From Posidonia oceanica (lineage: Eukaryota; Streptophyta; Magnoliopsida; Alismatales; Posidoniaceae), in the NCBI GenBank assembly GCA_037176725.1, contig JAZBRS010000013.1, forward strand, positions 6,885,001-6,949,000: a stretch of DNA of 64,000 bases, read 5' to 3'. Shown one piece after another: positions 5,068-56,657 of the stretch. Both the position numbers and the translations under genes were made by a program. The notes below the pieces were generated by a model. That model ran no database searches and was not told the origin of the DNA. It saw only the letters and a list, made by a program, of their open reading frames with translations. Within the stretch, counting starts at the first letter, position 1. Every line of letters begins with the position of its first letter.

Positions 5068-7988
5068 TGTAGTAACCCAAAAAATCGGCACGTCCATGCA
5101 CGATGCCAAAGCTCACTTGCACCGACCGATAGTAGGCCACTATTAGCGGTTGGATCCGAGGAGGGATGTTTGACTTGAAAACACCGGAAAAGCAGAGGCG
5201 AACACAAAAGGAAAATTAAAGGAAAGAAAAGGAGTCGCCACCTAATTTTATTAAAACGGAAAAACTAGGAAAACCGTATAAGGAACGTGCAGGGAAAACT
5301 GATGCATTTCGAAAACATGCGAAATCCAATGCAAATGTGTGACGTAGTCAATGTGGTCCAGAGAACGGGTAAGGACTCCTGTTACGTGTGGGGAAGGTGT
5401 TAGGCACCCCCGACACGCCTGAGGAATCGGTCTTTCTTAACTGATCCGCTATTGTGTGGCAAATGTTGGCAAATGAATGCCGGTTTATATTTGCCCTAAG
5501 GTGGTATGTAAGATGCAATTATAAACCATGCGAAGCTTAGCAAATCTTGTTTAAAAGTAGTTAAGTAAAATTAAAGCATTGCAAATAGGCGATAAACAAG
5601 CAAGAGAAGCGAAACTAAAGCTAAAGGAGTCGGATAAAAACAAAGGGGCGGCAGCGTGAACGGCTATGCCCACTGCCTGGATTGCTGCTGGAGTCGCTGG
5701 CCTGAGGGGCGGCAGTGCTTGTCGCCGGTGGAACTGGCGACACAAAGCATGTCTCCTGCTACCAACACAGCGGCAATCATCACCAAGGAAGACCATGGAA
5801 ATCACGCAAGACAAGAAATCGGCAAGAAAGCAATAAAGACTGCATGCTCTGAGATGAAACTGGTATTAAAACAAATTGATCAACAAAGCGAGGAGGCGGC
5901 AAGTGAGCGGCGTAGCTCACTGCCTGGACTGCAACCAAGTCGCTACTGAGAGTAGCAACTGAGCAGGTCGCCACTATGAGTAGCGCCTGATCCAGTCGCC
6001 AAGCTCCCAGGCGACACGGCCATGCACAGTATTCCCAAGCAGGAGCTTTTGCTGCTGAAAACAAACCATGTAGACTATGCGAAATAAGAAACTAAGCATG
6101 CAATATTATAGATGGCATATCAACGATCGAAACCATGCAATCACTTTGAAAAATGGCAATATGGATTACGAGATACGGCGGCCCAAAGTCCAGCTGGTGG
6201 ACTGTTGAAAAACACAGTCGAGTCGCCAGTGTGAACGGCGGCTCAACTGGTAGTCCTGGACCAAACTTCATGGCCAAATCTCGCACCCAAACCCATGCAA
6301 GATTAAAACTAATGGTGCAAGCATGTAGAGCAATCAACCACGATGTCAAGGAAACAAAAATCACATGAAACGGAGGCTTAGGTAACGAGATACACCGGCT
6401 CAAAGTCCGTTCGGTGGATTGTTAAAGTTGCAGGTTAGTCGCCGCTTGGAGCGGCGTCACCTCTGCAACCAAACAGTCCAAACAGAGGACTTTGGAGCCA
6501 AATCTCGCTTCACACACGATGCAAAGCAAGCAACTAAGTATGTGAAATTAAAAAGCAAACATCCACAATCACAGAGGAACAAACATCAAGCAAAATGACG
6601 GCCTAGATCGCCCGGAGCGTCGACCCAAAGATCGGCCGACGGCAGTTTGAAGTTGCAGGTCAGTCGTCGCTTGGAGCGGCGCTTGACTGGCAGTCCAATG
6701 TACAAACTTCAACGGTGAACTGCTCGCTCCAGGCAAAGCGAAAAAGATCGGGGAGGATCGGAGAACGTCGATGACGTTCCCACAAACCCAGCCACACCTT
6801 CGGTGTGGAAAATGGCGGCTTGTGGCACTCCACCCACCTCTGCCTCTTTGCGCCACCGTAGCTTGCCGGAGGCCGGTCGTGTGAGCGGCCAATGACCCGA
6901 CAAACCAGCTAGGAAGCTTCGAGGGACCGAGGGGGATGCGAGGGAGCACTCGCGGGCTGAGAAAAGAGACAGGCGTCTCTTTCCCGCCTCTACCGGCCAA
7001 TGGCCGGCGTTGCCGCGCCTCCTCGGCCATTGGCACGGCCAAGAGCACAAGAAGGTAAGTGGCTAATCTAAAACTAAAGAGAAGAGGTCCGGGAAGCTTC
7101 CCGAACCCTTAAACAAGTAATGTGGTGAGGTATACTACCTCTGTGGCTTCGTCGGAGTTGGCGGACAGAAGTTGGAGGGGCTCGCCGAAGTGGAAGAAGA
7201 AGGTAGCGGCGAGGCGCGGAAAGGCTTGGAATCACTCTGGAACGCTCAAGGGAAGGTCCGGAATGCTCTGGGGGCTCTCAATTTCGCTCTGGAAGCAAGG
7301 GAGGAGCAAGTGTGTGTGTGTGAGAGCGATCAACGGTGGTGGGTTATGGCGGTGGCAATTGGGTTTTGTTCGATGAGTTCTTCTGTACACAAGGATGAAG
7401 GGGGCAGACAAGGCGTAGAGGCAGTCGTGTGAGAGACTGTAAGGAGGTTTGGAAGCCGAGGAAGTAAGTGGACCGCAGGTCGAGGACGGCGAAGGTCGTC
7501 GGTGGCAGAAGAGGTGGACGACTGTGGCAGTGAGGGGCTGTGAGTATGGGAAGGACGCTGGCAGAGAGGATGATCGGTGGCAAGGAGTAAATGGCGCTTG
7601 GCGTGTTGTGCGTGACGGTAGTGGCCGAGGGGACGGGTGGTAGGTGACCGACGACCGGCAGCGGCTGCGTGGGAAAGCTTGGGCGGTGGCCTGAGTTATA
7701 GTCCAGTCGCCGCTACACGTGGCGCCAAACTCAATCGCCACTAAACTTGGTGATAGAGTCCAGTCGCCTCTGCATGCAGTTCCTGAGTCTGCAACTCAAT
7801 AAACTGGACTGCTAATGGGCTTGACTTGGGTTAGGTTTGAGTTAGGAAATGGATTAGGTTTGGGAAATGGAATTGGATGGTTTTGGGTTGGTTTTTGGTA
7901 GGGTTTTGAAATGGATTCGCCGTACCCTCTTCTGAGCCAACTTCCAGAGATTCTCCAACTAAAAGTTTGTCAAAATGGAGTGTCTACA
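5068..7988 (-). mobile_element. Solo LTR (2921 bp) of the TGTAGACACC/ATTACTACA family, TSD GTGTG
   Basis: The plus strand begins TGTAGTAACCC and ends AATGGAGTGTCTACA, so the sense strand is minus. GTGTG at 5063-5067 and at 7989-7993 is a perfect 5-bp target duplication, which proves both ends. No internal region or second LTR is present, so this is a solo LTR left by LTR-LTR recombination. It carries the family block with GGTGTTAGGCACC (about 5371-5438). It also has at least six short inverted motifs built from GTCGCC/GGCGAC arms, and a GC-rich middle (about 6570-7700) that generates several meaningless ORFs. It lies upstream of FLS. Confidence 0.92.
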
Positions 7989-13044: not shown

Positions 13045-13409
13045 ATGCCACCAATAAAGTTCGAGATTGAGAAGTTCGACCGGGATGTGAACATTGATTT
13101 GTGGCAAGTAAAGATGCGAGGCTGTTTGATCCATAACAGGTTGAAGAAGGCCATCCTTGGGAAGAAGATGAAGCCCAGCACCATGTCAGAGGAACAGTGG
13201 GAGGAACTTGATAAAAAGGCATTAACCTTGATTCAGTTGTCCGTGTCTAATGAGGTGTTGTGCGAGATCGTTCATGAGGAAAGTGCAGCAAGTGCTGGGC
13301 GGAAACTTGAATCCTTGTATATGACAAAGTCTCTTGCAAGCCGTCTACATTTGAAGCAAAAGCTATTTCTACTTCGGATGGGTGAAGGTACGCCTATTAA
13401 ACAACACTT
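13045..13409 (+). pseudogene. Copia gag, 5' part, truncated
   Basis: The frame starts MPPIKFEIEKFDRD and contains the copia-type Gag region (W-x-VKM, EEQWEELDKKAL, then LxxLYMTKSLASRLHLKQKL). About 121 codons are present before the frame leaves gag at position 13410 and enters unrelated LTR sequence. The nucleocapsid zinc knuckle and all of pol are missing. The ATG follows the tRNA-Met PBS by 37 bp, as expected. The last 140 bp recur at 15473-15612. Confidence 0.85.
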
Positions 13410-15472
13410 ACCGCCTCTTGGTCTCCACAAACAGAAAACCAACGGAAAACACTTTCCAAAACCTTTACAAAACTTATACATTTCTTTTCCAAATTCTTTT
13501 GGAAACAATTTTCGAAAACTATTTCGAAAATCATCATGAGAGTACAACGAACACAACACAGGAAAACCATTCCCAAAGCATTCTTTATTTTTCCTCAAAA
13601 ACCATTTGAAAACCCCTTTTTAAACCACATACCAAAAATCGACTCAAAACATTTCCAAAACCCCATTCAGAACAAGAGCTGAGGAAAAAAGTACACCTTC
13701 TGGACACAAAACCCACCTAGAAGTAACTACAAATAAGCCAAACCAAGGGTTTTGAAGTCCTAAGAAACAACAAGACCAAACCCCATTAAAACTAACACCA
13801 GAACCTTAAGTCCTGGAAACCAAGTGTTGGACGCAGACTGATCTGCGTCCAACATGGGACGCTAGGACCCCTAGCGTCCAACACACTGAACTGTGCCTCT
13901 GAACAAATTCAGTGCAAGCCACACACACATTCAAATGCTAAGCTATAGAAATACCCCCTAGCCTATCTACAGATTATTATCTACACCATGGAGGTTAAGG
14001 GACAACCTAGTATCCTCTATGTCATTTGTTCTTATTTTATCCCTAAAATAATGGCAATCTATTTAAATTTATCAACCTGGGACATTGGACGCTGGGATCC
14101 TTGCATCTTACATAAGACACAGAGAATCCTGCGTCTAACAACCCAGGACACCATTTCTTAATTAAAATCATACTAAAACTAACCTACACTATAATCTTTT
14201 CATTAAAAGATCCTAACATGAATAAATATCATCAATAATACTACATGTAACCTATTATCAAGTCCCTAATCCATTCAAATCAATACTACCTAAGCATGCA
14301 TTCAGATGACTGCCTGGGGTGTAAGATGCGGCATTATGGGCGTCTAACATAGGATGCACCAAACTTTGCGTCCAACACACAGACAACACAAACTTCATTA
14401 AAACCCTTCCCAGATCATGCATGCCTACACCATAATCCATGCATCCATAAAAAATGACTAGAGCAGACATCTAGAACACTAGCATGCATCAAAATCCATC
14501 CATAAAACATTATAATCAACCTCTAATGGGTATGTATCTAGCACCTAAGAAAGAAGCCATTCGCCTCCTTGCATGCATTCTCCCAAAGCTCCCTCCAGCC
14601 TCCCATGAACCTCCATAGTCCCCAGCGACCATGCAACAGCCAAAAATCCCAGAATCAAAGCATGTATCCAAGGAAAGAAGAAAAGAAGAAGAAGAAAGAA
14701 GAAATAGAGCTTACACCCAAGTTTGCCTCTTTCTCCCCTTGAATTTTCTCCCTTGGAACCCTTGGAATCACCCTCACACACCCCAAGGACATAGAAGAAA
14801 GAGGAGAAAGGAAAACTACTGAGAAACCCCCTACATGCACATATATAGGTAGTAGAAGTTTCTGGACACAATTCAGAGCGTTATACGTGACTGTCCATGT
14901 GTCTAATGTAAGACACATGCATGCACATGCTTAACCATGAGAATCATAGATGTTAAATGTAGCCTTCCTTGCGTCCAACATAAGACGTGCCAAACTCTGC
15001 GTCCTACACCCTGAAATCTAGAAAGCACAATATTCCATGTGTTGAACGCAGGGTTCCTTGCGTTTAACATAAGATGCAAGAATATTAGCGTCTAACACTC
15101 CAGAAGCCAGAAATCAATATTCCAGGTGTAAGACGCGGGATTTCTTGCGTCTAACATAAGACACAAGCATACCAGCGTCTAACACCGCAAGGATTCCTTG
15201 CGTCTAACATAAGATGCAAGAATATTAATGTCTAACACTCCAGAAGCCAGAAATCAATATTCCAGGTGTAAGACACGGGATTTCTTGCGTCTAACATAAG
15301 ACACAAGCATACCAGCGTCTAACACCGCAAGACCAGAAATTTCAACATTCTAGGTGTTGAACGCTGGACCTCTTACGTCTAACATAAGACGTAGGCATAC
15401 TAGCGTCCGATAACCCAGAAATCCAGATTAAATATCTGATCTAAAATGCTGCCAAAGATCTAGGTCGTTACA
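13410..15472 (+). mobile_element. 5'-truncated LTR of the TGTAACGACC family
   Basis: Its right end, AGATCTAGGTCGTTACA, and the preceding CAGATTAAATATCTG match the right end of the LTR at 36180-45579. Its left part matches that LTR's interior (CTTTCCAAAACC region near 43700). The first ~1.1 kb of the LTR is absent, and the left border joins copia gag directly. It contains about ten copies of the TTGGACGC-type hairpin module between 13825 and 15413. It also contains a 140-bp direct duplication (15101 and 15241) that carries one module and part of the next. Confidence 0.75.
15101..15335 (+). repeat. 140-bp tandem duplication containing hairpin modules
   Basis: CAGAAGCCAGAAATCAATAT starts at 15101 and again at 15241. 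The sequence after each copy is nearly identical, including the hairpin module that starts GTGTAAGACGC or GTGTAAGACAC. This shows local amplification of the module by tandem duplication. Confidence 0.9.
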
Positions 15473-15656
15473 GTTCATGAGGAAAGTGTAGCAAGTGCCT
15501 GACGGAAACTCGAGTCCTTTTATATGACGAAGTCTCTTGCAAGCTGTCTACACTTGAAGCAAAAGCTATTTCTACTTCGGATGGGTGAAGGTACGCCTAT
15601 TAAACAACACTTGGATGAATTTACCTCTATTATTATGGATTTAGAGAATGTTGACA
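15473..15656 (+). pseudogene. Second copia gag fragment
   Basis: The first 140 bp repeat 13270-13409 at equal length with scattered transitions, and include an in-frame TGA where the first copy reads Gly. Beyond the repeat it continues the Gag frame (LDEFTSIIMDLENVDI) that the first copy lost. It ends near 15656, where the sequence changes to unrelated DNA. The copia element is therefore truncated at its 3' side, and no pol or 3' LTR follows. Confidence 0.8.
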
Positions 15657-30455: not shown

Positions 30456-33400
30456 TGTAGACATCCTATTTTAACAACCTGGAAGTTGGTGGTTTCTCCT
30501 GTAGGTTTGCTTATACTCTGGGATGGCTCTCTTTTTCAGACTAACCCATTTCAACCCAAAATCAAATCTAAAACCCCACCTAAACCCCAAAACCATCATC
30601 CAAGCCTTTTACACTACTTTAAACCCTTCTTAAGCCCAAGCTCAAGTCCATTTCGGCCTTTGGCCTCCTGGACATGTTGAACGCTGGCACGGGCAGCGTC
30701 CAACGTTGGACGCGCTCTGTGCTAGCGTACAACGTTGGACGCGTTCTGTACCAGCGTCCAACGACCCGGGAGCTGCAGCGGCTGCTCCGCCACCCTCGGC
30801 TCACCTCCCGTCCACTCCACCGCCCGCACGCACTTACTACCCGTCCTCTCATCCACTCCAAGCCATCCATTACCTTCCAAGCCGAAGTAACTCCACTTAC
30901 TAGCCGTCTTCTCCGCCCTAGCCCCTTTCCCGCTCACTCCACCCTCACTGCCACCGCCACTGGATTCTCTGCCACCAGCGACTTCGGCGACCTTTTGGCA
31001 AGCCCATGCCCTTCGCCTGCCATGCCTCATGGCCTCCCCTCACACCCAAGCCTGCCACAGCCTTGCCACGACCTGCCAAAGTCTCTGGAACCACCCATGC
31101 AATCCAAACAAAACCATTGCCAAACAGCCTTCTTCCCAGGAACACCCAGCACACCAGAGCGATTCCCTTCACAATTCAACCATTCCCGGAGCTAGAGCAA
31201 ACTCCCACGACCCCTCTCGACCTTCCAACAACCTCTCCCAAGCCCCCAGCATGCCAAGCAAGCTTGCCGCAGCAGCCTCGCCGCTATCTTCCGCAACGCC
31301 GGTCGCAAGCGCAAACACGCCGTTCCAGGCCACAACCAGGTAGGTTCTCACTTCCCTTAGCTAGTGCACGTATGTAGTAGCATGATAGGATAGCTAGCAC
31401 ACATGCACGCCACCTTGATTGGCCGGAATTAGCCCGGCCTCTGGCAGTGAGGTGGAGGAGATGGGTGGCCCGATCTGGCCATCCATTTCTAGCTCCGAAC
31501 ACATGGGCATGTTCGTCTCGTCCCCCTCTTGCTTCTTGGATCCTTAAGTTCTAGTTTTGGATCGATCTTAGCATCGATTGGGCTGGAGGTTTGCTCGACT
31601 CGTTGGACGTCTCATCTGGAGCGTCCAACGTTGGACTTGCCCTGAGGCAGCATCCAACGACCTGCAGTTCTATTTGCTTGCCTTCCCCTTTTATTTTGCT
31701 TCTGTGATGCTTTAGCTTGCATGCTTGGCTGCTGCTTTGTTCTAGCATGTTCTCTTCATGTTTCTAGATGCCATGCTAGGTTTGGATTCATGTTTCTTGC
31801 CCTAGTTTAGCCTGCCGTTTTCTTGGGTGTTGGATGCTTGAATGCACGCGTTCAACGTTGGCCGTTGTGCTTTCAGCGTCTAACACCCTGTATGCATGCT
31901 TGCCCCTTTTTGCTAAGCCTTGCTCCTATTTCACTGTAGTTTGATTGTTCCTTCTTGTGCATGACTGTTTCAAGCTTGCTTTCATGCCTCTAGATGCCAT
32001 GCCATGCTTAATATAATGCTCTGATCTTTGGTTTAAATTCGTACTTGATCTGCTATCTGTCTGTGTTGAACGCTGGGGGCTTCAGCGTCCTACGTTGGAC
32101 GCTGCTGCTACCAGCGTCTAACGTCGCTACTCATTTACTTTGGTTTTAAGTGTTTGCATGATGCTCTGATTCATATGTTTGCATGATTTCTATGCTTGTA
32201 TGCTTGTTTAGCCTTCATAGCAATTGCTCCTCAGCTTTTATAGATCATATGCCAGTTTTATGCAGAGTTTTTGCTTGTTTGTGCCTCCCAGTGCGTTGGA
32301 CGCTGGTTCAGCTCGTGTCCAATGCTCTGGTTGAGCTTTCTTCTTTGCATGCCTTGCAGATGTTGTTTTTCTTGGATTTTCTCATATCCTATGCTTGCAT
32401 GTTTAGCCTATGCCTGCTTACAGTAGTCCAAATGCATGCTTACATATTTTGTTCATCATCTGTATGCCGATTGCCTTGCTGTCCTTTGGCCTGTGTTGGA
32501 CGCCAGTCTCTCTGGCGTCTAACGTTGGATGCCATGCCTTCGGGCGTCCAACACCCTGCTTGTTTAGAATGCTGATCTTTGCTTGCATCTTGCTCTGAAT
32601 CTGCTTCTGGTTTGTTGTCCTGTTTGCCCTGCATGTCATGCACCTATTCTACTGCATTTCTGCATCTACATCGCATTCATATAGCTAGAATGCATCTTTT
32701 TTTAAAAAACTGCATGCTGTCTGCCTCCAGCCGGTGTTGGACGCCAACAATGCCAGCGTCCAACGTTGGACGTAGCTATTGCAGCGTCCAACGCTTGCAG
32801 TTGGCTGAACCTGATTTTAAGACGCCGATTTGGTTTCATTCGCCGTTTTCCGTGTTTTGTTGCTTCTTATACGTACTGCTACCCCCATGCATGCTACTTG
32901 ACCCCTGTTTTGGTTTTGCACCTTGCCTTGCACGCTTTCTCTTGGTTTTCGCCCCAGATTCGCTTTCACTTTCTCTTTTGCATGTTGCTCACTTGCATTG
33001 TTTCCGCGCTTTTGCATCGTTTCCCACACTCTCGCATCGTTTTCCACGCTCTCACATCGTTTCTCGTGCTTGCATCGATTTCCGCGCTTTTGCATCATTT
33101 CTCGTGCTTGCGTCGTTTTCCGCGCTTTATCATTGTTTTCCGCACTCGCACCGTTTTCTGCGCTCGCTTTGATTTATCCCTTGTATGTCACTTGCATTGC
33201 CTGGTTTTCCCCGCAGTTTTGTTTTATCGCCTGCATTTGCATTAGGGCTATGATGCTTACTGCTTGGGAGTTCTCACGAATTAGGGTTCGCCCAGTTCGG
33301 AACACTAGCAGCGCTGCTGAGCACATAGATAACACGTTTATTTTCCATGCATAGCAATCAGTCATTCATTGCATTTATGCATTAGGCAAGCATCTTCCTG

Positions 33401-33810
33401 CATTAGCGAGCGAGATTGCCTAAGAAAGACCGACTCTCGGACGTATCGGGGGTGCCTAACACCTTCTCCGTGCGTAATAGGAGTCCTTGCCCTTTCTCTT
33501 GGCCCGCAATGACCTTTTCCTTCATCCTAGGCACGAGTCATAGCATAGCATCGCATTGTATTGCATCGCATCTCTTTGCATCCGGTTTTGCATGTCTTTT
33601 CATGCATTATCCTCGGTTTTCCTTGTCTCCGAACTTAATAGACCTGGTGGCAACTCCGATTTGTCTTATCATTTCTTTTTCTTCTTTTTGCTAGCATTTT
33701 CGAGTTAAGTTTCTTTCCTCGGATCTTGCCGCATATAGTGAGCATATTTTGATCGGTGCACGCGAGCTTTGGCATCGTGCATGGACGATAAGAATTTCAG
33801 GATTACTACA
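30456..33810 (+). mobile_element. Solo LTR (3355 bp) of the TGTAGACACC/ATTACTACA family, TSD GCCTG
   Basis: It begins TGTAGACATCC, ends AGGATTACTACA and is flanked by perfect GCCTG pentamers (30451-30455, 33811-33815). It carries the family block GGGTGCCTAACACC (33424-33488) and seven hairpin modules of the TTGGACGC type between 30675 and 32793. A degenerate array of about 20-22 bp period with TTGCATCGTTTTCC lies at 33000-33170. The terminal 200 bp match the ends of the other family LTRs (GTGCATGGACGAT..., GGCAACTCCGATTTGTC). No internal sequence remains. Confidence 0.93.
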
Positions 33811-34884
33811 GCCTGTCACGAATGCGAGGAATACCCATCAGCACTCACCGCACTGCAAATGCCCCAGAGTAGGCAGCAAAGCAGCAGAACTTAGTAGAAT
33901 TGCAGAATATTCCCACTAGTCCAAGGAAACTGCAAATAAGCTCCTAACTTTTGCAGAAGCATCAAATCTGCCCCAATCTCGGGCAGAACCTTAGCAAAGC
34001 ACCTCAAAGTCATGAGGATGCTTCCGTAAGGCCTCGCCAGGTTGCAAAAGTAATGAACAACAAGAAGAAACCGCAGTGCAAGGAAAATTGTAGAAAAGCC
34101 CCTATAGTTTTTAGAATACCAGAGCCACCTCAGATTGATGCCAGAATTGCTCAGAATGTTTTCCAAGCAGAGGACTCAACCACAGCATCCATCAATTGCC
34201 CCCAAGTTAGGCAGAGCTGCCATGCACCCCTAGTTGGGAAAATTACACTAATGCCCCTATCTTTCCGTGAAGCTGCGGAATGCCCCCTTCAGCGCTCTAC
34301 GCAATTGCAAGCATACTCATAAAGTGACCCTCAGCCTGGTGCATCCTTCAGAGCGTGCTGCAATCAAGCAGAAGCGCTATGAGCACTGTAGCAAGGTAAA
34401 TTGCAAATGCACCCCTCCAAAGCAATTACGGATTCCTTGGAGCAATAGGCGAGCTACTGAGCAGCCAGGCAGAAATCCGCAACACCCCTATGGAACTACA
34501 GCATGCCTCATCACCTTGCCAGCTTAGCGGAATGGCCAACTGCCCCCCATGATCCTACAGAAGCCGCAAAATGCTCCTTTGGGTGATGTGATTGCAGCAA
34601 ACAAACAACTGGCAGATCTGTCGTATGCCTCTCCTAAGAACCATGACAAGACATACACCCCCGGCAAAGTCATGAATCCAGCACATAGCATAGCGGAAGC
34701 AAACCCTAGCCAGGAATAGAATCATGGCAAACGACAGCCTGCCCCCAACACATAGCTTAGCAACAGGACACTCCCTGCGAGTGCCACAACGCATCTGCTT
34801 GCTCACTGGCTCTAGAGGCAGAGCAGAAGTCCAAAGATGCCCCCACATTCAACCAGGTATGATATTCAACCTACTTTCGAGTTT
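33811..34884. other. Right half of the split repeat
   Basis: A degenerate succession of phrases such as TTGCAGAA, GCCCC and TTTTGCAGAAGC, continuing the sequence interrupted at 30455. No gene is seen. It passes into the 77-bp array, so it may be part of the 3' untranslated region of a plus-oriented retroelement. Confidence 0.4.
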
Positions 34885-35700
34885 GCCTTCCTCGCGACTT
34901 CGTCCAGGCAGACGAAGTTCCGCTTGCTTGTTTCCTCATGCCAAGTGGTCGAGGACAAGTTTGTCTTCTCGCGACTTCATTTGGGTGAACGAAGTCCCGC
35001 TTGCTTGTTTTCTCGTGCCGGTTGGTCAAGGACAAGTTTGTCTTCTTGCAACTTCGTCCAGGCGGACAAAGTCCCGCTTGCTTTTTTCCTCGTACTAGGT
35101 GGTCGAGGACAAGTTTGCCTTCCTTGCGACTTCGTCTAGGTGAACAAAGTCCCGCTAGCTTGTTTCCTCATGTCGGGCGGTCGAGGACAAGTATACCTTT
35201 CTCGCGACTTCGTCCCGGTGGACGAAGTCCCGCTTGCTTGTTTCCTTGTGCCGGGCGGTTGAGGTCAAGTTTGCCTTCTCGTGACTTCATCCGGGTAGAC
35301 GAAGTCCCGCTTGCTTGTTTCCTCGTGTCGAGCAGTCGAGGACAAGTTTGTCTTCTTGCAACTTCATCCGGACGGACAAAGTCCTGCTTCCTTGTTTCCT
35401 CGTGCTGGACGATCGAGGACAAGTTTGTCTTCTTGCGACCTCGTCAGGGTGAACGAAGTCTTGCTTCCTTGTTTCCTCGTGCCGGGCGGTCGAGGACAGG
35501 TTTGCCTTCTCGCGAGAACAAGTCGAGGACAAGTCTTGCTTTTCCCGCGACTTCATTTAGGCAGACGAAGTCCCGTTGGTTTGGTGCCTCGTGCTGGACG
35601 GACGAGGACCGGCTTGCCTCCTTTCGCGCGACCTCGCTCCGAGCGAGCGAAGTCCTACTTGCTTGGTGTCTCGATCTGGGCAGACGAGGACCAATTTTCC
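34885..35700 (+). repeat. 77-bp tandem array, about 10 copies, each with a hairpin
   Basis: The anchor CGCGACTTC recurs at 34893, 34970 and 35047 and onward, a 77-bp period. Each monomer contains GACTTCGTC, a spacer of about six bases, and GACGAAGTC, a clear inverted repeat, followed by CCGCTTGCTTGTTTCCTCGTG and GTCGAGGACAAG. Because 77 is not a multiple of three, the long open frames across it are accidental. Plant Tat/Ogre elements are known for such arrays in their 3' untranslated regions. Confidence 0.93.
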
Positions 35701-36179: not shown

Positions 36180-37285
36180 TGTAACGACCTGTCCAGTCGC
36201 TACCTCTCAACCTAACCAGACTTTTTTTTTCATTTTTATCTTTTATTAGCATTTATGAACTACAAAGCTAAATTCTCACGATGCAATAAGCAACAATAAA
36301 TAAACTAACTTACTTACCCAGAAACCTCGATGTGTGGTAGCATGACTTCTCCTATGTGCACTAGCAAGCGAACAACACCTATCCTGCACCTGCGAAAACA
36401 CGCAAACCAAAGCACACGTGAGTGACCAGACAAAACGGTCATCCAGCACACACCCCACCTAAACCACTCAACCAACAATGCTGAGGGAGTCGGCGTAATC
36501 ACACCACAGCAAACAAACACGGGCATCCCACCTGGATGCCACCACAGCACAACAGGGCAGCACAATAATACCCGGTGTAGTAATCCCGCTGTTCAGATCG
36601 TCCATGCACACTGCCAAAAGCTCGTGTGCACCAATCGGAATCAGGCTCACTATAAGCGGCCATGTCCGAGGAGGAAAGCTCAACTCGAAAACACTTGAAA
36701 CAGAGGAGAAAAGATAATAAGAGAAGAAGATAAGACAATTCAGAGTCGCCACCGTGTCTATTATCGAGAGACAAGGAAAATCGAGGAAATGCATGGATTA
36801 ACACGCAAAACCAAGCAAAGGATGCAATGCAAAGCATTGCAAAGGAAAACAAATGCAAATGAATGCAAATGATATGACTCATGCCTAGGATAAGGGCAAT
36901 ATGGTCATTACGGGCCAAAAGACTGGGCAAGGACTCCTGTTACGTGCAAGGAAGGTGTTAGGCACCCCCGACACGCCCGAGAATCGGTCTTTCTAGGCTT
37001 ACACTCGCATACGCAGGGAAATGCAGGTTTGAATGCCTAAGTGCCAATGAATGCCTGAATGAATGCTCAAAGGTGTGCTCTAAGTGATGGGATGCAATGC
37101 AGGGAAGTAAACGTGCAATCTAAGTGCTCAGTAACGCTGTCTGTGTTCCGAACTGGTCGAAACCTGGCTCGTGAGAACTCCAGAGAGTAAGCATCACTGC
37201 CCTATATGCAAATGTAAGCGAAAAAAGCAAAACGGCGGTAAAACCAAGCAATGCGGGTGACATGCAAGAGAAAATAGCATAAAAC

Positions 37286-37820
37286 ACGCAAAACAATGCG
37301 AGAAACGGGAGCGGCACGCGAAACGATGCAAGAAAACAGGATCGGCACGCAAAATAGTGCTAGAAAACAAAGCGGCACGTGGAACGGTGCAAGAAACAAG
37401 AGCGGCATGCGAAATGGTGCAAAAAACAGAAGCGGCACGCGAAACGGTGTAAAAAACAAGAGCGACACGCAAAACGGTGCGAGAAAACAAAGCCAACATG
37501 CGAAGCGGTGCAAGAAACAGAAATGGCACACGAAACAGTGCAGAAAACAAAGCGAGCACGCGAAGCGGTGCCAAAGACAGAGCGGGCACGCAAAACGGTG
37601 CGAAAAAACAGAAGTGGCACGCGAAACGGTACGAGAAACAGAAGCGGCACGCGAAACGGTGCAAGAAAGCAAAGCGGGCACGCAAAACGGTGCCAAAGAC
37701 AGAGTTGGGCACGCAAAACGGTGCTAAAAGGAATGCGGGCACGCAAAACGGTGTAAGAACAAAGCAGGCACGCAAAACGGTGCCAAAACAAAGCGGGCAC
37801 GCAAAACGGTGCCAAAGCAG
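37286..37820 (-). repeat. 30-bp tandem array inside the LTR
   Basis: About 17 units of GCACGCAAAACGGTGCAAGA type, period about 30 bp with small length changes. The sense strand (minus) stays open for 346 codons over 38234-37194, giving a ten-residue repeat rich in Phe, Cys, Leu and Pro (FACPLCF..HR). The homologous array in the LTR at 50141-56004 lies at 55015-55314 in the sense orientation. Confidence 0.92.
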
Positions 37821-42060: not shown

Positions 42061-45000
42061 TAATAAATATTAGAAAATCAAGAAATAAGCTAAAAATAAA
42101 ATAAAAATATAAATAAAATGCAGAAGTGATAGATACATAGGGTGGGCCCACAGCCAGGCAAGAAGAAGAGAGAGAAGGGAGTGAAAAGACGGAGAATAAT
42201 CAGGAGAGAGAGGAGAGAGAAAAGAATAATCTAGGAGAGAGAAAAGGATAATTTGGATAAAGGATGAGGTTAGAGGTTTAGAAAAGAGGTGAAATTTGGG
42301 GAGTGTGTAGCCTAGGGTCTCTAGTGTTGGACCTAGGGTTTGGGTTTGGATTTGGGAAGGTTTTGGAAGGGTTTTGAGGTGTAGAAAAATGGTAGTTTTA
42401 CCTAGGTTTTCTAGGATTTTTGAGAGTGATTTTGGTTTGAAATTTCTAAGGATTTTTGGTAGGTTTGCTAAGTTGGGGATGGTGAGTTTTCCTATGATTT
42501 TTGGGTAGTTTTTGGGCTTGGGAAAGAGGTGTGATTTTAGGTTAAGTTTGGGCTTGTTTTGGAGAGGAGGATGAAAAGGAATGTGTAGGTTTGGACCTAG
42601 ATTTGGATCCAGAAGCCATTAGAAGATTCCAATTGATTCAGCCTGTCAAAATGGGGTGTCAACACCCGACCAACAACAAAAACCAATAAAACGTGCCTTT
42701 GAAATCATTTATCTCTTTTCGTTTCAAATCATATGCATGCTCTTTCAAAATCTTAAAAGCATACTTGAAATGGCCAATCTAGCCAAATCAAGCCTAAAAC
42801 ACAAAACCAACTCGCAGCCTGGTCCCACGCCCTCATTGGGCGGACCAGACGGCCAACAGCGCCTGAATGCCTCAATCGCATTCAGAACGCACAGCACAAC
42901 AAACACAAAGCCAACCAAACACAGGGCCTCAATGGCCAAACAATAACGTCTTAAACAGGTGGAAAACTCTAGACCCAATATGGCCAAAACTTGGCAAAAG
43001 CCATCAAGCCACAAAAACAGGCAAAGCTCGAGGCCCAATACAGCCAAAACAAACCAAGCACGGCCCAAACGAGTACAAAATAAAACCAACTAGTCGTGTT
43101 GCCTAGCGCCCCAGCAACTGACCTGGCTTCAAGCAGTAGCCAGGGGCTAACCCCTGCAACTCACTGCACTGCCAAGGACACTCGCCATGTGGGGGAGTGT
43201 GCCCGTCACGGCATCTCACACCAGAGACGCCTCAAAAAGCTATCCCCAACTGGGAAGGCGGTCCACACTCGAGAGAAACCAGAGGGCACGCCTAATACGA
43301 CGCCCACAAGCTCAGTGCTTCGAACCACTAGAGGCTCCTCACCCTTAGGCTCAGCCAGCACCCACAAGTCTCGGTCCACGTAACAACTAAGGTATCATGC
43401 CCAGCTACAAAAAAGTATCATACCTCCCGAGTCCGCTGCCACGATACCATTAGGTACGACCGGCACCTCGACCCTACAGACCTCAACCCTGGTGACGTGT
43501 CTGACGCACCGCAGAGTGTAGTTGCATTCCCGAGGAATGTAGTCACACCCACGGGTCCAGGCTACACTCACCTCGAAGTCTTGGCCCGCAACAAGCACTT
43601 GGACCTTACCTTGGCAATAGCTCACAACCCCAGGGGTATCAGTCATCCCTGTAAGGCCGGTCAATGCCTCAGTCTCGGTCCACAACCAAAGGCACAGTAA
43701 AATCCTTTCCAAAACCTTTTCAAAACTAATGCATTTTCTTTTAAAACTCCTTTCAAAGACTATTTCGAAATCCTTAATTGACAACTCAAAAACACTACAA
43801 AACACAGTACAGAACACAGCACGAAAACTACGAACAGAAACCACAGCTTAAAACACAGCCAAAACACAGCCTCGGCAGCTCCTTTGTCAGGCCCAAGAAC
43901 CACACTACAAAACGCAGCACAACAGAGAAACAAAGGCACCTCCTAGGCAAAAAGTTTACCTAGGAGACACCACCCAGAAGCACAACACCAATCTCGAAGT
44001 CCCAATGTACTTACGAGACCGAGCACCCATACAAACTGCACTCAGAACACTAAGTCCTGGTGCCAAGGTCTAATCCTAAGGTTATCATGTTCCCTAATGT
44101 CCATCTAGACCAATTAGGGAAAACCTTAGCATTACTAGGTTGTTTAGTCTTTTAATTCCAACCCTAGTACATGTGGGATCTTGCTAATTCATTTTAGGCA
44201 ATTCTTAACCTATCTCTAATGATTTGTCTAATTATCATCTTGCCATAACTACCTACAATGTCCATTTAGCATTACTCACATTAGAATTATCAAAAACAAG
44301 TCCCTAAGGACTTAAAAGTAACTAAATCCCAAAAGTCAGGGACTAAAAAGCAATCCCCATAAAGCTTAGGGACTAAAGGGCAATATCCACTGAACTCAAG
44401 GACTAAAAAGTAATATAAAACTAGGGAACTACATGCAATTAAATGGAAAATTAAGGACTGGAAAGTAATCCAGGCGTTGGTGCTGGGAAACCCTGCGTCC
44501 AACGTTGGACGTAGAGAACCCTGCGTTCAACACCTTGGGTTCCCAAAATCCTGAATTCTCCTCCTACTTACTAACCTGCATGTTCATTAATTAAACCATA
44601 ATTAACTAGTATGGAAAACACCACGAAATCTACTGCATGCAACCTACCATCCAACCATTAACCCAAGTCATGCCCCTCTAAACAGAAAACATGAAAAACA
44701 GGAGCAGGGGTGTTAGACGCAGCTTCAGCCAGCTTCTAATGTTGGACGCACCAGGGTGTGCGTCCAACACCCTACAGCCAGAGGTTCAACTAGAACCTCC
44801 AACATAGGCGTGCAAACACCCTACAAATCACAACCATACAAGAACATATGCATATAAACAGATTCAAGGCATTAATGAACTAAACTACCTCCTTAAACAT
44901 GCAAATAAATCTCTAAAGGGGCGTGTACCTTGCACCCAAGAGGCGAGCCAACACAACGAGCTCCACCGCGATCCAAGGCTCCCTGCAAGCTCCCAGCCAC

Positions 45001-45579
45001 GCCCCAAACCTCCTCTGGCCATCCGCCAAGCCCACAGCAACCCTCGCAGCATCAACACCCCAAAATCAGTGGGTGGAACCAAGAAAAAGAGGGAAGAAAG
45101 AGGAGAAAGGATACCAAGGCCTATACATACCTCTCTCTCTCTCTCTCTCCCAAGCTCCCAGGCAGCCAAGGATCACTAGAGAACACCCCCCATGCCGCCG
45201 GAGAAGAAAGGGAGGAAGTGGGGAAGAAAATACCCCCAAGGAGCCACTGACTTACTCCTTATATAGGCAACTGGTGCACTCAAAGCGTTAGACGCTATCT
45301 GTCCATGCGTCTTACATAAGACGCACCACATTCTGCATCTTACACTCAGAAATCCAGGAGTACTGACACACAGGTGTTGAACGCAGGATTCCTTGCGTCT
45401 AACATAAGACACAAGCCCACTAGCGTCTAACACCTTGAGACAAGAAAATCCACATTCCAGGTTTTGGAAGCGGGATTTCTTGCGTCTAACATAAGACGCA
45501 GCATTTCCAGTGTCTAACACCCTCATATTCCAGATTAAATATCTGGTCTAAAATTCCACCAAAAAATCTGGGTCTTACA

Positions 45580-47380: not shown

Positions 47381-50300
47381 TGGACATAACTTGGTCCCAC
47401 TGCGGTCCTTGCAACGCTGCCATAACTCGCGATGCGATCGTGCCATAAGAGAGGGAGGGAAGTCGCGATCAGCAGTGAATCTGAGGAGAAACTCAACTCG
47501 AAAACACCGGGAAAACGCGAAATAAAACAAAGATAAGACAAAAGGGAGTCACCACCTAGTCTATTATCAGGAAGACGAGGAAAACCAAGGAAAAGCATAG
47601 AAAACAAGCAAATGAATGCAATGCTATGCAAAATGTATGACTCATGCTAAGGATAAGGGCAAAATAGTCATTATGGGCTAGAGAAAGGGTAAGGACTCCT
47701 GTTACGTGCGGGAAAGGTGTTAGGCTCCCCCGACACACTCGAGAAGTTGGTCTTTCTTGGCTAAACGCTCACATATGCCAGATGTTGGCAATTGCTTGCC
47801 TTTGCTATACGCCCGTAGGTGATAGATGCCATGCTATGAATGCTTTAACTGCTTAAAGTGCCTAAATGCCATGTATGGGAATTAAACGTGCTGTTTACGC
47901 GCTCAGCAGCGTTGCCAGTGTTCCGAACCGGACGACCCTTGGTTCGTAAGAACTCCAGGCAGTAAGCATCACTGCTCTAATGCAAATGCAGGCGATAAAG
48001 CAAAACATCGATAAACCACGCAATGCATGCGACATGCAAAGGGGAAAGCGAACAAGGGCGAGAAAACCAAATAAAACCGCACAATGCAAGCGACATGCAA
48101 AAGGGAAAGAAAGCTGACATAGAAAACTATGGGAAAGCATGCAATGCAAGGCACAAAACCAAAACAGGAATCTGGCAGCATGCACAGGTGTTATAGCATG
48201 TATCAGAGGCAATAAAACAAGGGAAACAGCGAGCGAAACAAAAGCGACGACTTAAAACTGAGTTCAGCCATCTGTAAGTGTTGGACGCATCCATGACCTG
48301 CGTCCAATGTTGGACGCAGGAAAAGCTGGCATCCAACACAGACAGAAGGTAAAAAAGCATGCAATCTAACTATATGAATGTGATGCCAATGTAAGGATGC
48401 AGTAGAATATGTGTATGACATGTAGATCAATCAAGACAACAAATCAGAAATGATTTCAGAGCAAGATGCAAGCATAGAACTGAATTTAAGCAGAATAGGG
48501 TGTTGGACGCCAGAGATCATAGTGTCCAACGTTGGACGCAAGAAGGCTCTGCATCCAACACAGGGCAAGCAGCAGCACAGCAAGATAGCATGCAAATGAT
48601 AAATAAAGCATTAAAGCATGTATTTGAATTGCTGTAAACAGGTTAGGGCTAAGCATGCATACAAGTATTGAATAAAAAGTCCAAAAAGAAGGGCATCTGC
48701 AAAGCATGCAAGGGAGAAAGCACAACCAGAGTGTAAGACGCAAGCTACACCTGCGTCCAATGTAGGACGCAAGGAATGCCAGCGTCCAACACAAGGGAAG
48801 GCAGAGATAAAAAATAACCTGCAAGAAACCTTGATAAAAACCAAGCAAGCTTGACTACAGCCACTGAGAGGGCCAAACACTCACATGCAAGCATGGATCA
48901 AGCCAACATAAAATATCAGAGCATCATGGAAGCATTTAGGCAATAGCAGATGAGCAGCAAAATAGGAAGCAGAGCATATCGACATCCAACATAGGATGCA
49001 GACAAACCCTACGTCCAACACATAAAAGTGGCAAATCATTCTGCAAGAAGAAACTGAGCTTGGAAATCACTTAAACATGCATGCAAGCTATGGAAAACAG
49101 TCCAAACAAGATCATGCATCATAGATCGAGCAAGTATTCTATATAGAACACTAAGAGAAACATGCATAAGGAGAAAAGGGAACAAAACCCATACAAATCC
49201 ACATGCAACCTTAAAAGGGACTTGCATACCTGGAGAACAGCAGCCACAGGGCCCAAACACCATTAAGCATGCATAGAGCAAGTTTAAAACTCAAAAGGAA
49301 GTAAGACTCAAGCATGGCAGCAAGTACAAGCATGCAGATAGATAGGACGCTGGACACACCAGCGTCCAACATTGGACGCAGAGTGTACCAGCATCCAACA
49401 CAGGCAGGAGGCACACTAAGCTAAAGCAAGAAAGAAAAGTCCAAGTAAGGATCCATACTTGGCATAAATCATGCAATAACATTCATAAGCATCAAGGGAA
49501 GCATTTAAAGCAAGCTCACAGAGTTGCAACTAAAACATGCTAACATAAATGCAAAATAAAACAAAATGAAACAAATAGCCAGCAGAGGTGTTGGACGCTG
49601 CCTCATGGCAGGTCCAACGTTGGATGCACCAGCTGGTGCGTCCAACAAGTCGGGAACTTTCCCAGCCAAGATCAGTGGCCAAGGTGGCCAAAAATCGCCA
49701 AGTGACTTGCTAGGAAGCAAGAGTGGCCGACGACGAGCATGTCCATATGCTCGAAGCCAGAAATAGGTGGGTGGATTGCTCCACCCACCTCCTCCTCTTC
49801 GTGGCCGGAAAGGCAAGGTGGGGAGGGGTGTGTGTTGTGCTAAAAAGCAGGGAAACTAGCTAGGAACGTTACCACATGCATGCACGAGCTAAAGGGATCG
49901 AAGGCCTACCTTGGTGCGGCCTAAAACGGCATGTCCACTCTCGGCTAGTCGGCGTGGAAGGTGGCGGCAAGCCAACTCCGGCGAGCTTCCTTGGCGTGTA
50001 GGAGGCACGGGAGAGGGAGCTGGAGGTCTGGGAGTGGTCGTGGGTAATCGCTCTGGGTCGCTCAAGCTCTGAATCCTCACGAGAGTTGGTGTGGTGATCT
50101 CTGGAAGAGGGAGAAGTGGGCTGTTTTGTTGGGTTCATGGTGTAGACACCCCATTCTGACAGACTGAACTAGTGGAATCCTTCTGGTGGCTTCTGAACCA
50201 AACACCTTAACCTAAACCAAACCTAGAATCACACCCATATTCTAACCCAAAAAACCACCCAAAAACCATAGGAAAACCCATCCTTTCAACCTAGAAAACT

Positions 50301-55314: not shown

Positions 55315-56657
55315 TTGTTTTCCTTTGCATATCGCTTGCATTGCCTGGTTTTACCGCTGTTTTACTTTATTGCCTGCATTTGCACTTAGGGCAGTGATGC
55401 TTACTGCCTGGAGTTCTCACGGACAAGGGTTCGCCCGGTTCGGAACACAGACAGCGTTGCTGAGCGCTTAGATTGCACGTTTAATTCCTTGCACGCATTC
55501 CATCACTTAGAGCACACCTATGGGCATCTAATTAGGCATTCATGGCACTTAGGCATTCAAAGTATGCATTTCCCTGCGTATGCGAGCGTAAGCCTAGAAA
55601 GATCGATTCTCGGGCGTGTCGGGGGTGCCTAACACCTTCCCCGCACGTAACAAGAGTCCTTGCCCTTTCTCTTGGCCTGCAATGACCATATTGCCCTTAT
55701 CCTAGGCACGAGTCACATCATTTGCATCTCATTTCTTTTGCATTGCATCGCATTGCATCTTTTGCTTGGTTTTGCGTGTTTATTCACGCATTTCCCCGAT
55801 TTTCCTTGTCTCCCGACTTAATAGACACGGTGGCGACTCTGATTTGTCTTATCTTCTTCTTTTCTTTCCTTTTTTCCCTTTTTTAAGTGTTTTCGAGTTA
55901 AGTCTTCCTTCTCGGACACAGCCGCTAATAGTGAACCTGATTCCGATCGGTGCATGCGAGCTTTGGCATTGTGCATGGACAATCCGACCACCGGGATTAC
56001 TACACATGGGTTTGTTTTCAACGGTGGCAAGGGCTTTTGGGTTGTGTTTGGTAGGCAATGGCAGGCATGGCAGGGGTCGCTGAGTGTGGGGAGTCCAAGA
56101 GGGATGTCAGGGAGTTAGTGTGGAAGGTCCGGATGGTCACCGAAGTCGTTGTGGTGGCAGAGATTGGGTGGCAATGGCAGTGAGGGCGGAGGTGAGCGAG
56201 AAACGCGCTGGGGCGGAAAAGAGGCGATGGCAGGCTGTCACCCGACCTTGGCGGCTAGTGGGTGGCTGTAGTGAGGTGAGGGGATGGGTAGTAAGTGTGT
56301 ACGGGTGGTGGAGGGGACGGGAGGTGAGCCAAAGGTGGCGGAGTAGCCGCTGCAACTCCCGGCGCATTGGACGCCAGCACAGGTTGCGTCCAACATTGGA
56401 CGCAACCCATGTCTGCGCCCAATGAGCGCAGGAGGCCAAAGGCTAAAATGGGCTTGGGCCTTAGTTTAAAAAAGGTTTAAAAAGTTGGTTAAGGCTTAGG
56501 TTGAGTTGTGGTTTGGGATTTGGATAGTTTTGGAATGGGATTTGATTTTAGGTAAAATTAGGTCAGTTTGAAAAAAAAAAAGGAGCCGTCCGAGAGTCCA
56601 AGCAAACTTCCAAGAGAGGTCGACCATCTTCCAGGCGGTCAAAATGGGGTGTCAACA

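What the first reader, a model, noticed from the sequence alone, without database searches (positions are those of the whole stretch)
30675..32793. Dispersed ~60-bp double-hairpin module (TTGGACGC/GCGTCCAA) repeated throughout LTRs
The phrase GTGTTGGACGC, ~10 variable bases, GCGTCCAACGTTGGACGC, ~10 variable bases, GCGTCCAACAC occurs again and again. It forms two back-to-back hairpins joined by the palindrome GTCCAACGTTGGAC. Copies here start at about 30675 (a triple version), 31601, 31827, 32063, 32493 and 32734, with a half copy at 32291. Others start at 13825, 14093, 14320, 14949, 15039, 15126, 15256, 15354, 44474, 44710, 45374, 45459, 48279, 48500, 48731, 49341, 49589 and 56363. The arms are conserved and often covary, while loops differ completely. 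That pattern suggests selection on structure, or a very small mobile or recombining unit. I know of no named plant element with this layout.
Basis: seen in the sequence. Interest (0 to 1): 0.87.

Follow-up and report, generated by a model that had tools for sequence, protein, structure and literature searches.

The report
Retrotransposon four-arm DNA docking array
A short inverted-repeat motif whose basic unit occurs 96,873 times with perfect arms in this likely plant genome, and which several retrotransposon families carry, is predicted to be a docking array for a DNA-binding protein rather than an RNA hairpin.

Summary
The repeat is real: 26 modules lie in the window, and the genome holds 47,725 exact 18-bp cores and 96,873 exact-arm units against 0 for the reversed patterns. 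A unit is a 9-bp arm, a spacer and the inverted arm; units mostly come in abutting pairs. Spacing is rigid: 187 of 194 units have a 10 or 11 bp spacer, and 86 of 86 joints have no gap.

The hairpin reading fails its own test. Arms do co-vary, but equally well when paired so that no double hairpin can form (85.7% against 85.9% paired cells, score 0.245 against 0.242). 18 of 27 independent modules are predicted to fold into one long hairpin instead. Between subfamilies arms are 85% identical, flanks 64%, spacers 50%.

I read it as an array of DNA-binding sites, in gypsy-type LTRs at about 230 bp intervals, working like Sirevirus LTR repeated motifs and Arabidopsis VANC-target arrays. Binding is inferred and the protein is unknown. 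It is a new variant of a known kind; nothing seen supports a new RNA element or a tiny transposon.

The parts
30676..30762 (+). triple run of units, upstream of the splice-donor-like site
31602..31658 (+). module (two abutting units)
31829..31884 (+). module
32065..32122 (+). module
32295..32323 (+). single unit (half copy); related loci L008 and W48 have a full module here
32495..32552 (+). module
32736..32792 (+). module
13826..14376 (-). group IV, three modules (13826, 14084, 14321) on the low-coordinate side of the TATA-like site
   Evidence: TATA-like site at about 14843 seen by eye
14952..15411 (-). [quoted passage not shown]
44476..44768 (-). group IV, two modules (44476, 44712)
45287..45518 (-). 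group IV, three modules (45287, 45376, 45463) beyond a TATA-like site at about 45259
   Evidence: TATA-like site seen by eye
48280..49646 (-). group I (subfamily Ib), six modules (48280, 48502, 48733, 48962, 49342, 49590)
56366..56423 (-). module; the stretch around it matches the 30.5-31.1 kb part of the group I LTR in reverse

Best explanation
The module is two abutting 28-29 bp inverted repeats carried by retrotransposons, and its four 9-bp arms are likely binding sites for a sequence-specific DNA-binding protein that would activate or de-silence the element. Shown: arms at fixed spacing (10-11 bp inside a unit, 0 bp between units), arms conserved far above spacers and flanks, arms varying together as a set of four, and arrays with a preferred period of about 230 bp. 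Inferred: a 10-11 bp spacer is about one turn of B-DNA, so the two arms of a unit would face the same side of the helix; a protein dimer or tetramer would bind a unit pair; many modules on either side of the promoter would recruit it densely. Family differences (TTGGAC, TAAGAC, TTATCC arm types) would reflect a change in what the protein recognises, or different proteins. Growth of the array by tandem duplication of ~230 bp units has weak support from in-register similarity. The identity of the protein, host or element-encoded, is untested, and so is binding itself.
For: Rigid spacing: 187 of 194 units have 10 or 11 bp, 86 of 86 joints 0 bp; genome-wide 96,873 exact-arm units with spacers of 3-17 but only 728 with 12-30. 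Arms conserved, spacers free in sequence (85.1, 64.3 and 50.3% for arms, flanks, spacers). Arm position 2 is T in 327 of 328 arms, which pairing alone would not require. All four arms vary together, same-sense arms included (192 and 201 of 243 against 189, 189, 194, 189 for the complementary pairings). At a shared module of L024 and L033 the spacers are nearly alike while TAAG-type arms stand against TTGG-type arms in all four. Modules on both sides of a TATA-like site in group IV. At least four groups with unrelated flanks share it.
Against: No binding, expression or chromatin data. The spacer bases next to the arms show some extra symmetry (pair 1, 26 of 49 against 17.3; pair 4, 24 against 14.5; pair 5, 19 against 12.8; pairs 2 and 3 not significant), which a simple arm-only site does not predict; in the 27 independent modules it is not consistent. 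The second L033 module has TAAG-like arms in one unit and TTGG-like arms in the other, and L024-L033 shows slightly more compensated pairs in the hairpin pairing than in the other (6 against 4). G.T mismatches exceed A.C in the hairpin pairing (89 against 59), as RNA pairing would predict, but also in the core pairing (48 against 27). Group II arms differ within one module, so one protein need not fit all. The sites match no factor that I could name; no motif library was at hand.
Confidence: 0.6

Rival explanations
1. RNA double hairpin under selection: the transcript folds into two stem-loops used for packaging, export or as a small-RNA source.
For: Modules fold far better than shuffles (z -3.9 to -7.6 in 6 of 6 tested); co-variation exceeds shuffles on three of five measures; palindromic clusters in maize Sirevirus LTRs attract small RNAs (passages of PMC10760457).
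Against: The excluding pairing does as well. 18 of 27 independent modules prefer outer plus core pairing on the strand as read, 21 of 27 on the other strand. Compensated changes do not exceed one-sided ones. Group II keeps the layout with stems that mismatch. Loop length is fixed at 10-11, which a hairpin would not need.
Confidence: 0.12
2. Neutral palindrome correction: template switching during reverse transcription or replication copies one arm onto another, so the arms stay alike without function, and LTR amplification spreads them.
For: All four arms change together; whole 29-bp units are lost or gained.
Against: Arms are conserved above flanks between subfamilies and recur in groups with unrelated flanks; a copying process keeps arms alike but does not hold them to one sequence, nor fix spacer length and position 2.
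Confidence: 0.1
3. Cruciform or other DNA structure formed by the palindromes, for example as a recombination or replication signal.
For: Symmetry at several levels: unit, core and whole module.
Against: Position 2 is more constrained than symmetry demands, and group II keeps the layout with asymmetric arms.
Confidence: 0.06
4. A very small mobile unit that inserts into LTRs.
For: Same module in groups with unrelated flanks.
Against: In one alignment of eight loci modules are at matching places and no clean empty site was seen; a common ~230 bp period and in-register similarity point to tandem growth.
Confidence: 0.04

Closest known systems
Sirevirus (Ty1/copia) LTR repeated motif (RM) boxes, such as those of Usier, HOPIE and OPIE-2 (PMC2829016; passages and sections 9 and 19 seen)
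   Same: Short palindromic motifs in high copy in LTRs, flanks diverged, no known binding factor; consensus words such as GTCGGACGTCCGAC share GGAC/GTCC with this motif.
   Different: There a single palindrome with 0-3 intervening bases and a CGG-CCG core (12 of 13 elements), mostly in the upper half of the LTR before the TATA box, and called Sirevirus-specific. Here a double inverted repeat with 10-11 bp spacers, TGGAC instead of CGGAC, in gypsy-type elements, on both sides of the promoter.
VANC-target motif arrays of Arabidopsis VANDAL DNA transposons (PMC5735166, passages; PMC10398659, abstract)
   Same: Nine-base motifs in arrays in non-coding element DNA, growing by tandem repeats and diverging together; motif type differs between subgroups.
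   Different: No reader protein is known here.
Palindrome clusters of maize Sirevirus LTRs as small-RNA hotspots (Bousios 2016, not held; seen through passages of PMC5311732 and PMC10760457)
   Same: Clustered palindromes in LTR regulatory regions that fold strongly on paper.
   Different: Copia elements; small-RNA data exist there, none here; PMC10760457 reports no obvious structure peak for maize Ty3 elements.
Tnt1 BII boxes (PMC3316501, passages)
   Same: Repeated boxes in a plant LTR that bind host factors.
   Different: Copia element; the passages seen say only that BII boxes bind defence-induced factors, and their layout is recalled, not seen.
Double-hairpin elements of fungal mitochondrial DNA (recalled, no call)
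   Same: Two adjacent hairpin-forming repeats.
   Different: Organelle DNA and, as I recall, mobile; no mobility seen here.

Membership tests
Sirevirus RM boxes | Many palindromic copies in LTRs | tested here: met
   Group I and IV arrays; LTR status shown for group I only
Sirevirus RM boxes | CGG-CCG core | tested here: not met
   Commonest arm is GTTGGACGC; CGG occurs only in minority arms such as GCGGATAAC of L022
Sirevirus RM boxes | Carrier is a Ty1/copia Sirevirus | tested here: not met
   Group I has gag PF03732, taken as gypsy-type; RT and integrase not tested; groups III and IV not tested
Sirevirus RM boxes | Boxes cluster upstream of the TATA box | tested here: inconclusive
   In group IV modules lie on both sides of a TATA-like site seen by eye
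VANC-target arrays | Element encodes the anti-silencing reader of the motif | not tested
VANC-target arrays | Motifs in one orientation | tested here: not met
   Arms alternate in orientation
VANC-target arrays | Array grown by tandem repeats | tested here: inconclusive
   36 of 62 distances at 218-258 bp, weak in-register similarity
Structured RNA element | Compensatory changes specific to the proposed helices | tested here: not met
   Same values for the excluding pairing
Structured RNA element | Match to a known RNA family | tested here: not met
   0 Rfam matches at gathering threshold in the window
Mobile mini-element | Precise presence or absence with intact flanks, or target duplication | tested here: inconclusive
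   Only whole-unit differences noted in one alignment of 8 loci

The most novel reading that the evidence does not exclude
Ty3/gypsy retrotransposons of this plant run a sequence-specific activation or anti-silencing system of their own: a trans-acting protein, possibly the plant mobile domain protein encoded between modules in group II, reads a four-site operator with one-turn spacing, and its target word is rewritten in all arms at once when families split (TTGGAC, TAAGAC, TTATCC), leaving over 96,000 docking units in the genome.
Probability: 0.15. Interest if true: 0.82.

Novelty: new variant of a known kind. Interest (0 to 1): 0.52.

Why it matters
If the sites are bound, one plant genome carries about 10^5 near-identical operator units dispersed by retrotransposons, so one protein could wire or de-silence a large part of the genome at once. 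It would extend the repeated-motif design of Sireviruses to gypsy elements and offer a case where motif and reader might co-evolve in LTR elements as VANC and VANDAL do. It also gives a caution: symmetric protein sites can look like co-varying RNA hairpins, and pairing the arms the other way is a cheap control that tells them apart.

Tried and rejected
RNA hairpin covariance: tested and rejected as specific. I built no covariance model, because the alternative pairing scored the same. Rfam: no match in the window at the gathering threshold. Motif in papers: the 18-mer is in 0 papers; the 9-mer together with 'retrotransposon' gives 4 papers with unrelated titles and abstracts. I recalled a similar GGCGTTNAACGCC motif in peanut; the three strings searched are in 0 papers, so it stays a recollection. 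Holocentromere satellites of Chionographis (PMC10264360, passages) have 23/28-bp monomers with dyad symmetry but form megabase arrays; rejected. Protein homologues of the L022 PMD ORF: 1 hit, unnamed. Pfam on ten of the 48 window ORFs of 150 aa or more: nothing. Random sampling: of ten 10-kb stretches taken by place, 2 hold a unit within 3 mismatches of the TTGG type; that scan misses TAAG-type arrays such as L024. Rows dropped: overlapping registers (90 to 82 modules); 95 modules collapsed to 27 clusters; 26 of 27 aligned, the one with a 9-bp spacer left out. Bousios 2016 is not held and is known here only as cited in others.

Not answered: genome-wide counts of one-sided and two-sided arm changes, a count of the TAAG-type core, and a genome-wide PF10536 search; the machine was busy at every try.

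Full report
What is there. The window lies in an unnamed assembly of 2.96 Gb in 80 contigs. The repeated unit is an arm, GTTGGACGC in its commonest form, a spacer of 10 or 11 bases, and the inverted arm. Two units usually abut, giving a module of 56-58 bp. With a 9-position arm profile and spacers of 3-20 allowed, 194 units were found in the window and loci (overlapping L005 and L009 left out) against 1 in the same sequences reversed; 187 have a spacer of 10 (75) or 11 (112); runs are 78 doubles, 26 singles and 4 triples; all 86 joints have no gap.

Scale. The exact 18-bp core occurs 47,725 times in the genome, the exact-arm unit with a spacer of 3-17 bases 96,873 times, and with a spacer of 12-30 only 728 times. 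The reversed patterns occur 0 times. All 54 plus-strand places listed, the first of the genome, have spacers of 10 (18) or 11 (36).

Where it sits. Group I (window 30.6-32.8 kb plus and 48.2-49.6 kb minus, L002, L004, L005, L007-L009, L027, L029) matches places that come in same-strand pairs: five pairs are 10.9-11.4 kb apart (C56, C75, C4, C19, C74), others farther. In the C56 pair a gag domain (PF03732, E 1.4e-5) lies in the same direction about 3.2 kb inside. I therefore call it a Ty3/gypsy LTR; RT and integrase were not tested for this group. Most of its array (31.6-32.8 kb) follows a splice-donor-like CAG|GTAGGT at 31340, about 260 bp before the first module, while the triple at 30676 lies before it. 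The sense strand is T-rich (AT skew -0.23 to -0.35 in eight of nine group I stretches, 0.01 in L009). That the array lies in a leader intron is inferred. Group IV (13.8-15.4 and 44.4-45.5 kb) has modules on both sides of a TATA-like site (by eye). Group II modules lie by an ORF with a plant mobile domain (PF10536, E 3.4e-9 in L006, above the cut-off; below the cut-off in L003 and L022). In L022 units lie on both sides of it, at 5501-5571 and 7317-7448 around the ORF at 5850-6935. For group III (L012-L015, L026, L031) two ORFs were scanned, without a domain.

Arms against the rest. In an alignment of eight group I loci, subfamilies Ia and Ib agree at 85.1% of arm positions (1685 of 1981), 64.3% of flank positions (9746 of 15167) and 50.3% of spacer positions (598 of 1189), summed over pairs. 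Arms were picked by likeness to the motif in one partner only. Within Ib the contrast is small (86.5, 81.5, 79.8%). Spacers thus change fastest between subfamilies yet keep their length. Arm position 2 is T in 327 of 328 arms.

Is it a hairpin? If the double hairpin were selected, arms should match their stem partner better than other arms. They do not. In 26 modules from separate clusters the hairpin pairing gives 85.7% paired cells, 28 cells changed on both sides and a score of 0.245; pairing first arm with fourth and second with third, which excludes the double hairpin, gives 85.9%, 29 and 0.242. In both, these three measures exceed all 500 shuffles, while the number of pairs with two-sided change and of further pair types do not; so there is co-variation, but it concerns all four arms. 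In 27 clusters agreement is 189, 189, 194 and 189 of 243 for first unit, second unit, core and outer pairing, and 192 and 201 for same-sense arms. In 62 sense-oriented modules 80.4, 80.6 and 80.1% of cells are Watson-Crick in hairpin, core and outer pairing. In eight group I locus pairs, compensated changes number 0-2 in the hairpin pairing and 0-3 in the other, one-sided changes 12-22 and 10-22. Predicted folds: 18 of 27 independent modules prefer one long hairpin on the strand as read, 21 of 27 on the other; 61 and 64 of all 95.

Signs for pairing. Spacers have some symmetry (pairs 1, 4 and 5 of 49 distinct spacers, p 0.003, 0.002, 0.03; pairs 2 and 3 not), not consistent over independent modules (second unit z 2.3, first unit z 0.0). 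Symmetry at pair 5, whose bases are adjacent or one base apart, cannot be a hairpin stem, so I lean to dyad DNA. G.T mismatches exceed A.C in the hairpin pairing (89 against 59) but also in the core (48 against 27) and outer pairing (42 against 33). L024-L033 shows 6 compensated pairs against 11 one-sided in the hairpin pairing and 4 against 14 in the other, from two modules; in their second module one unit is TAAG-like and the other TTGG-like in L033.

Arm types. Besides TTGGACGC there are TAAGACGC (L024, group IV), TTATACGC (group II) and TTATCCGC (L022) arms. L024 and L033 are about 68% alike. At one shared module the spacers TGAGACTGGT and TGAGTCTGGT match at 9 of 10 bases while TAAG-type arm bases in L024 stand against TTGG-type in L033 in all four arms (one L024 arm is degraded, GCATTTTAC). 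The direction of change is unknown.

Array. Of 62 neighbouring distances under 1 kb, 36 lie at 218-258 bp, in groups whose flanks do not match each other. Inter-module stretches of one locus align a little better than those of different groups (mean 22.5 of 39 against 17.8 of 496, the latter including Ia-Ib pairs), and several best alignments are in register (L002 offsets 12/12 and 4/4), others not. I take the arrays as old tandem repeats of about 230 bp in which the arms were kept; this is weakly supported.

Reading. Fixed spacing near one helical turn, a nearly invariant base, conserved arms with free spacers and joint variation of all arms are what a DNA-bound protein multimer would impose. 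The design works like the Sirevirus repeated motifs (PMC2829016) and VANC-target arrays (PMC5735166), but fails defining features of both, so I file it as a new variant of repeated cis-motifs in transposable elements. Passages of PMC10760457 say that maize Ty3 elements generally lack an obvious peak of miRNA-like structure while Copia LTRs have one. PMD proteins of the host are linked to a promoter DNA motif (PMC7156037, passages), which makes the group II ORF a lead and no more.

Limits. One genome; modules sampled mostly from the start of one contig and the window; several loci were chosen by an exact core, which biases the core towards the consensus; group labels rest on BLAST; sense direction outside group I rests on TATA-like and donor-like sites and T-richness; the genome-wide two-sided count did not complete.

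Noticed in passing
window 34880-35622: Nine copies of a ~77-bp tandem repeat with GACTTCGTC..GACGAAGTC-like dyads, another dyad-rich array.
   Followed up: no
window 33011-33182 and 37285-37486: Short tandem arrays of 38 and 30 bp; inverted copies lie near them (33267-33346 with 37102-37181, 33423-33514 with 36903-36994).
   Followed up: no
window 13270-15620: The module-bearing block at about 13411-15469 sits between two ~140-bp copies of copia-gag-like sequence, much longer than a normal target duplication (by eye).
   Followed up: no
L002, L004, L007, L008: CATGCATG (an RY-like word) 0.83 per kb against 0.04 per kb in 100 kb of random loci.
   Followed up: no
L022:5850-6935 minus; L006:45-857 plus: Plant mobile domain ORFs beside modules; in L022 modules lie on both sides.
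   Followed up: partly
62 sense-oriented modules: At arm position 3 the two arms of a unit fail to pair in 42 of 124 cells; the sense strand often has T in both arms, which fits a T-rich strand bias overriding pairing.
   Followed up: partly
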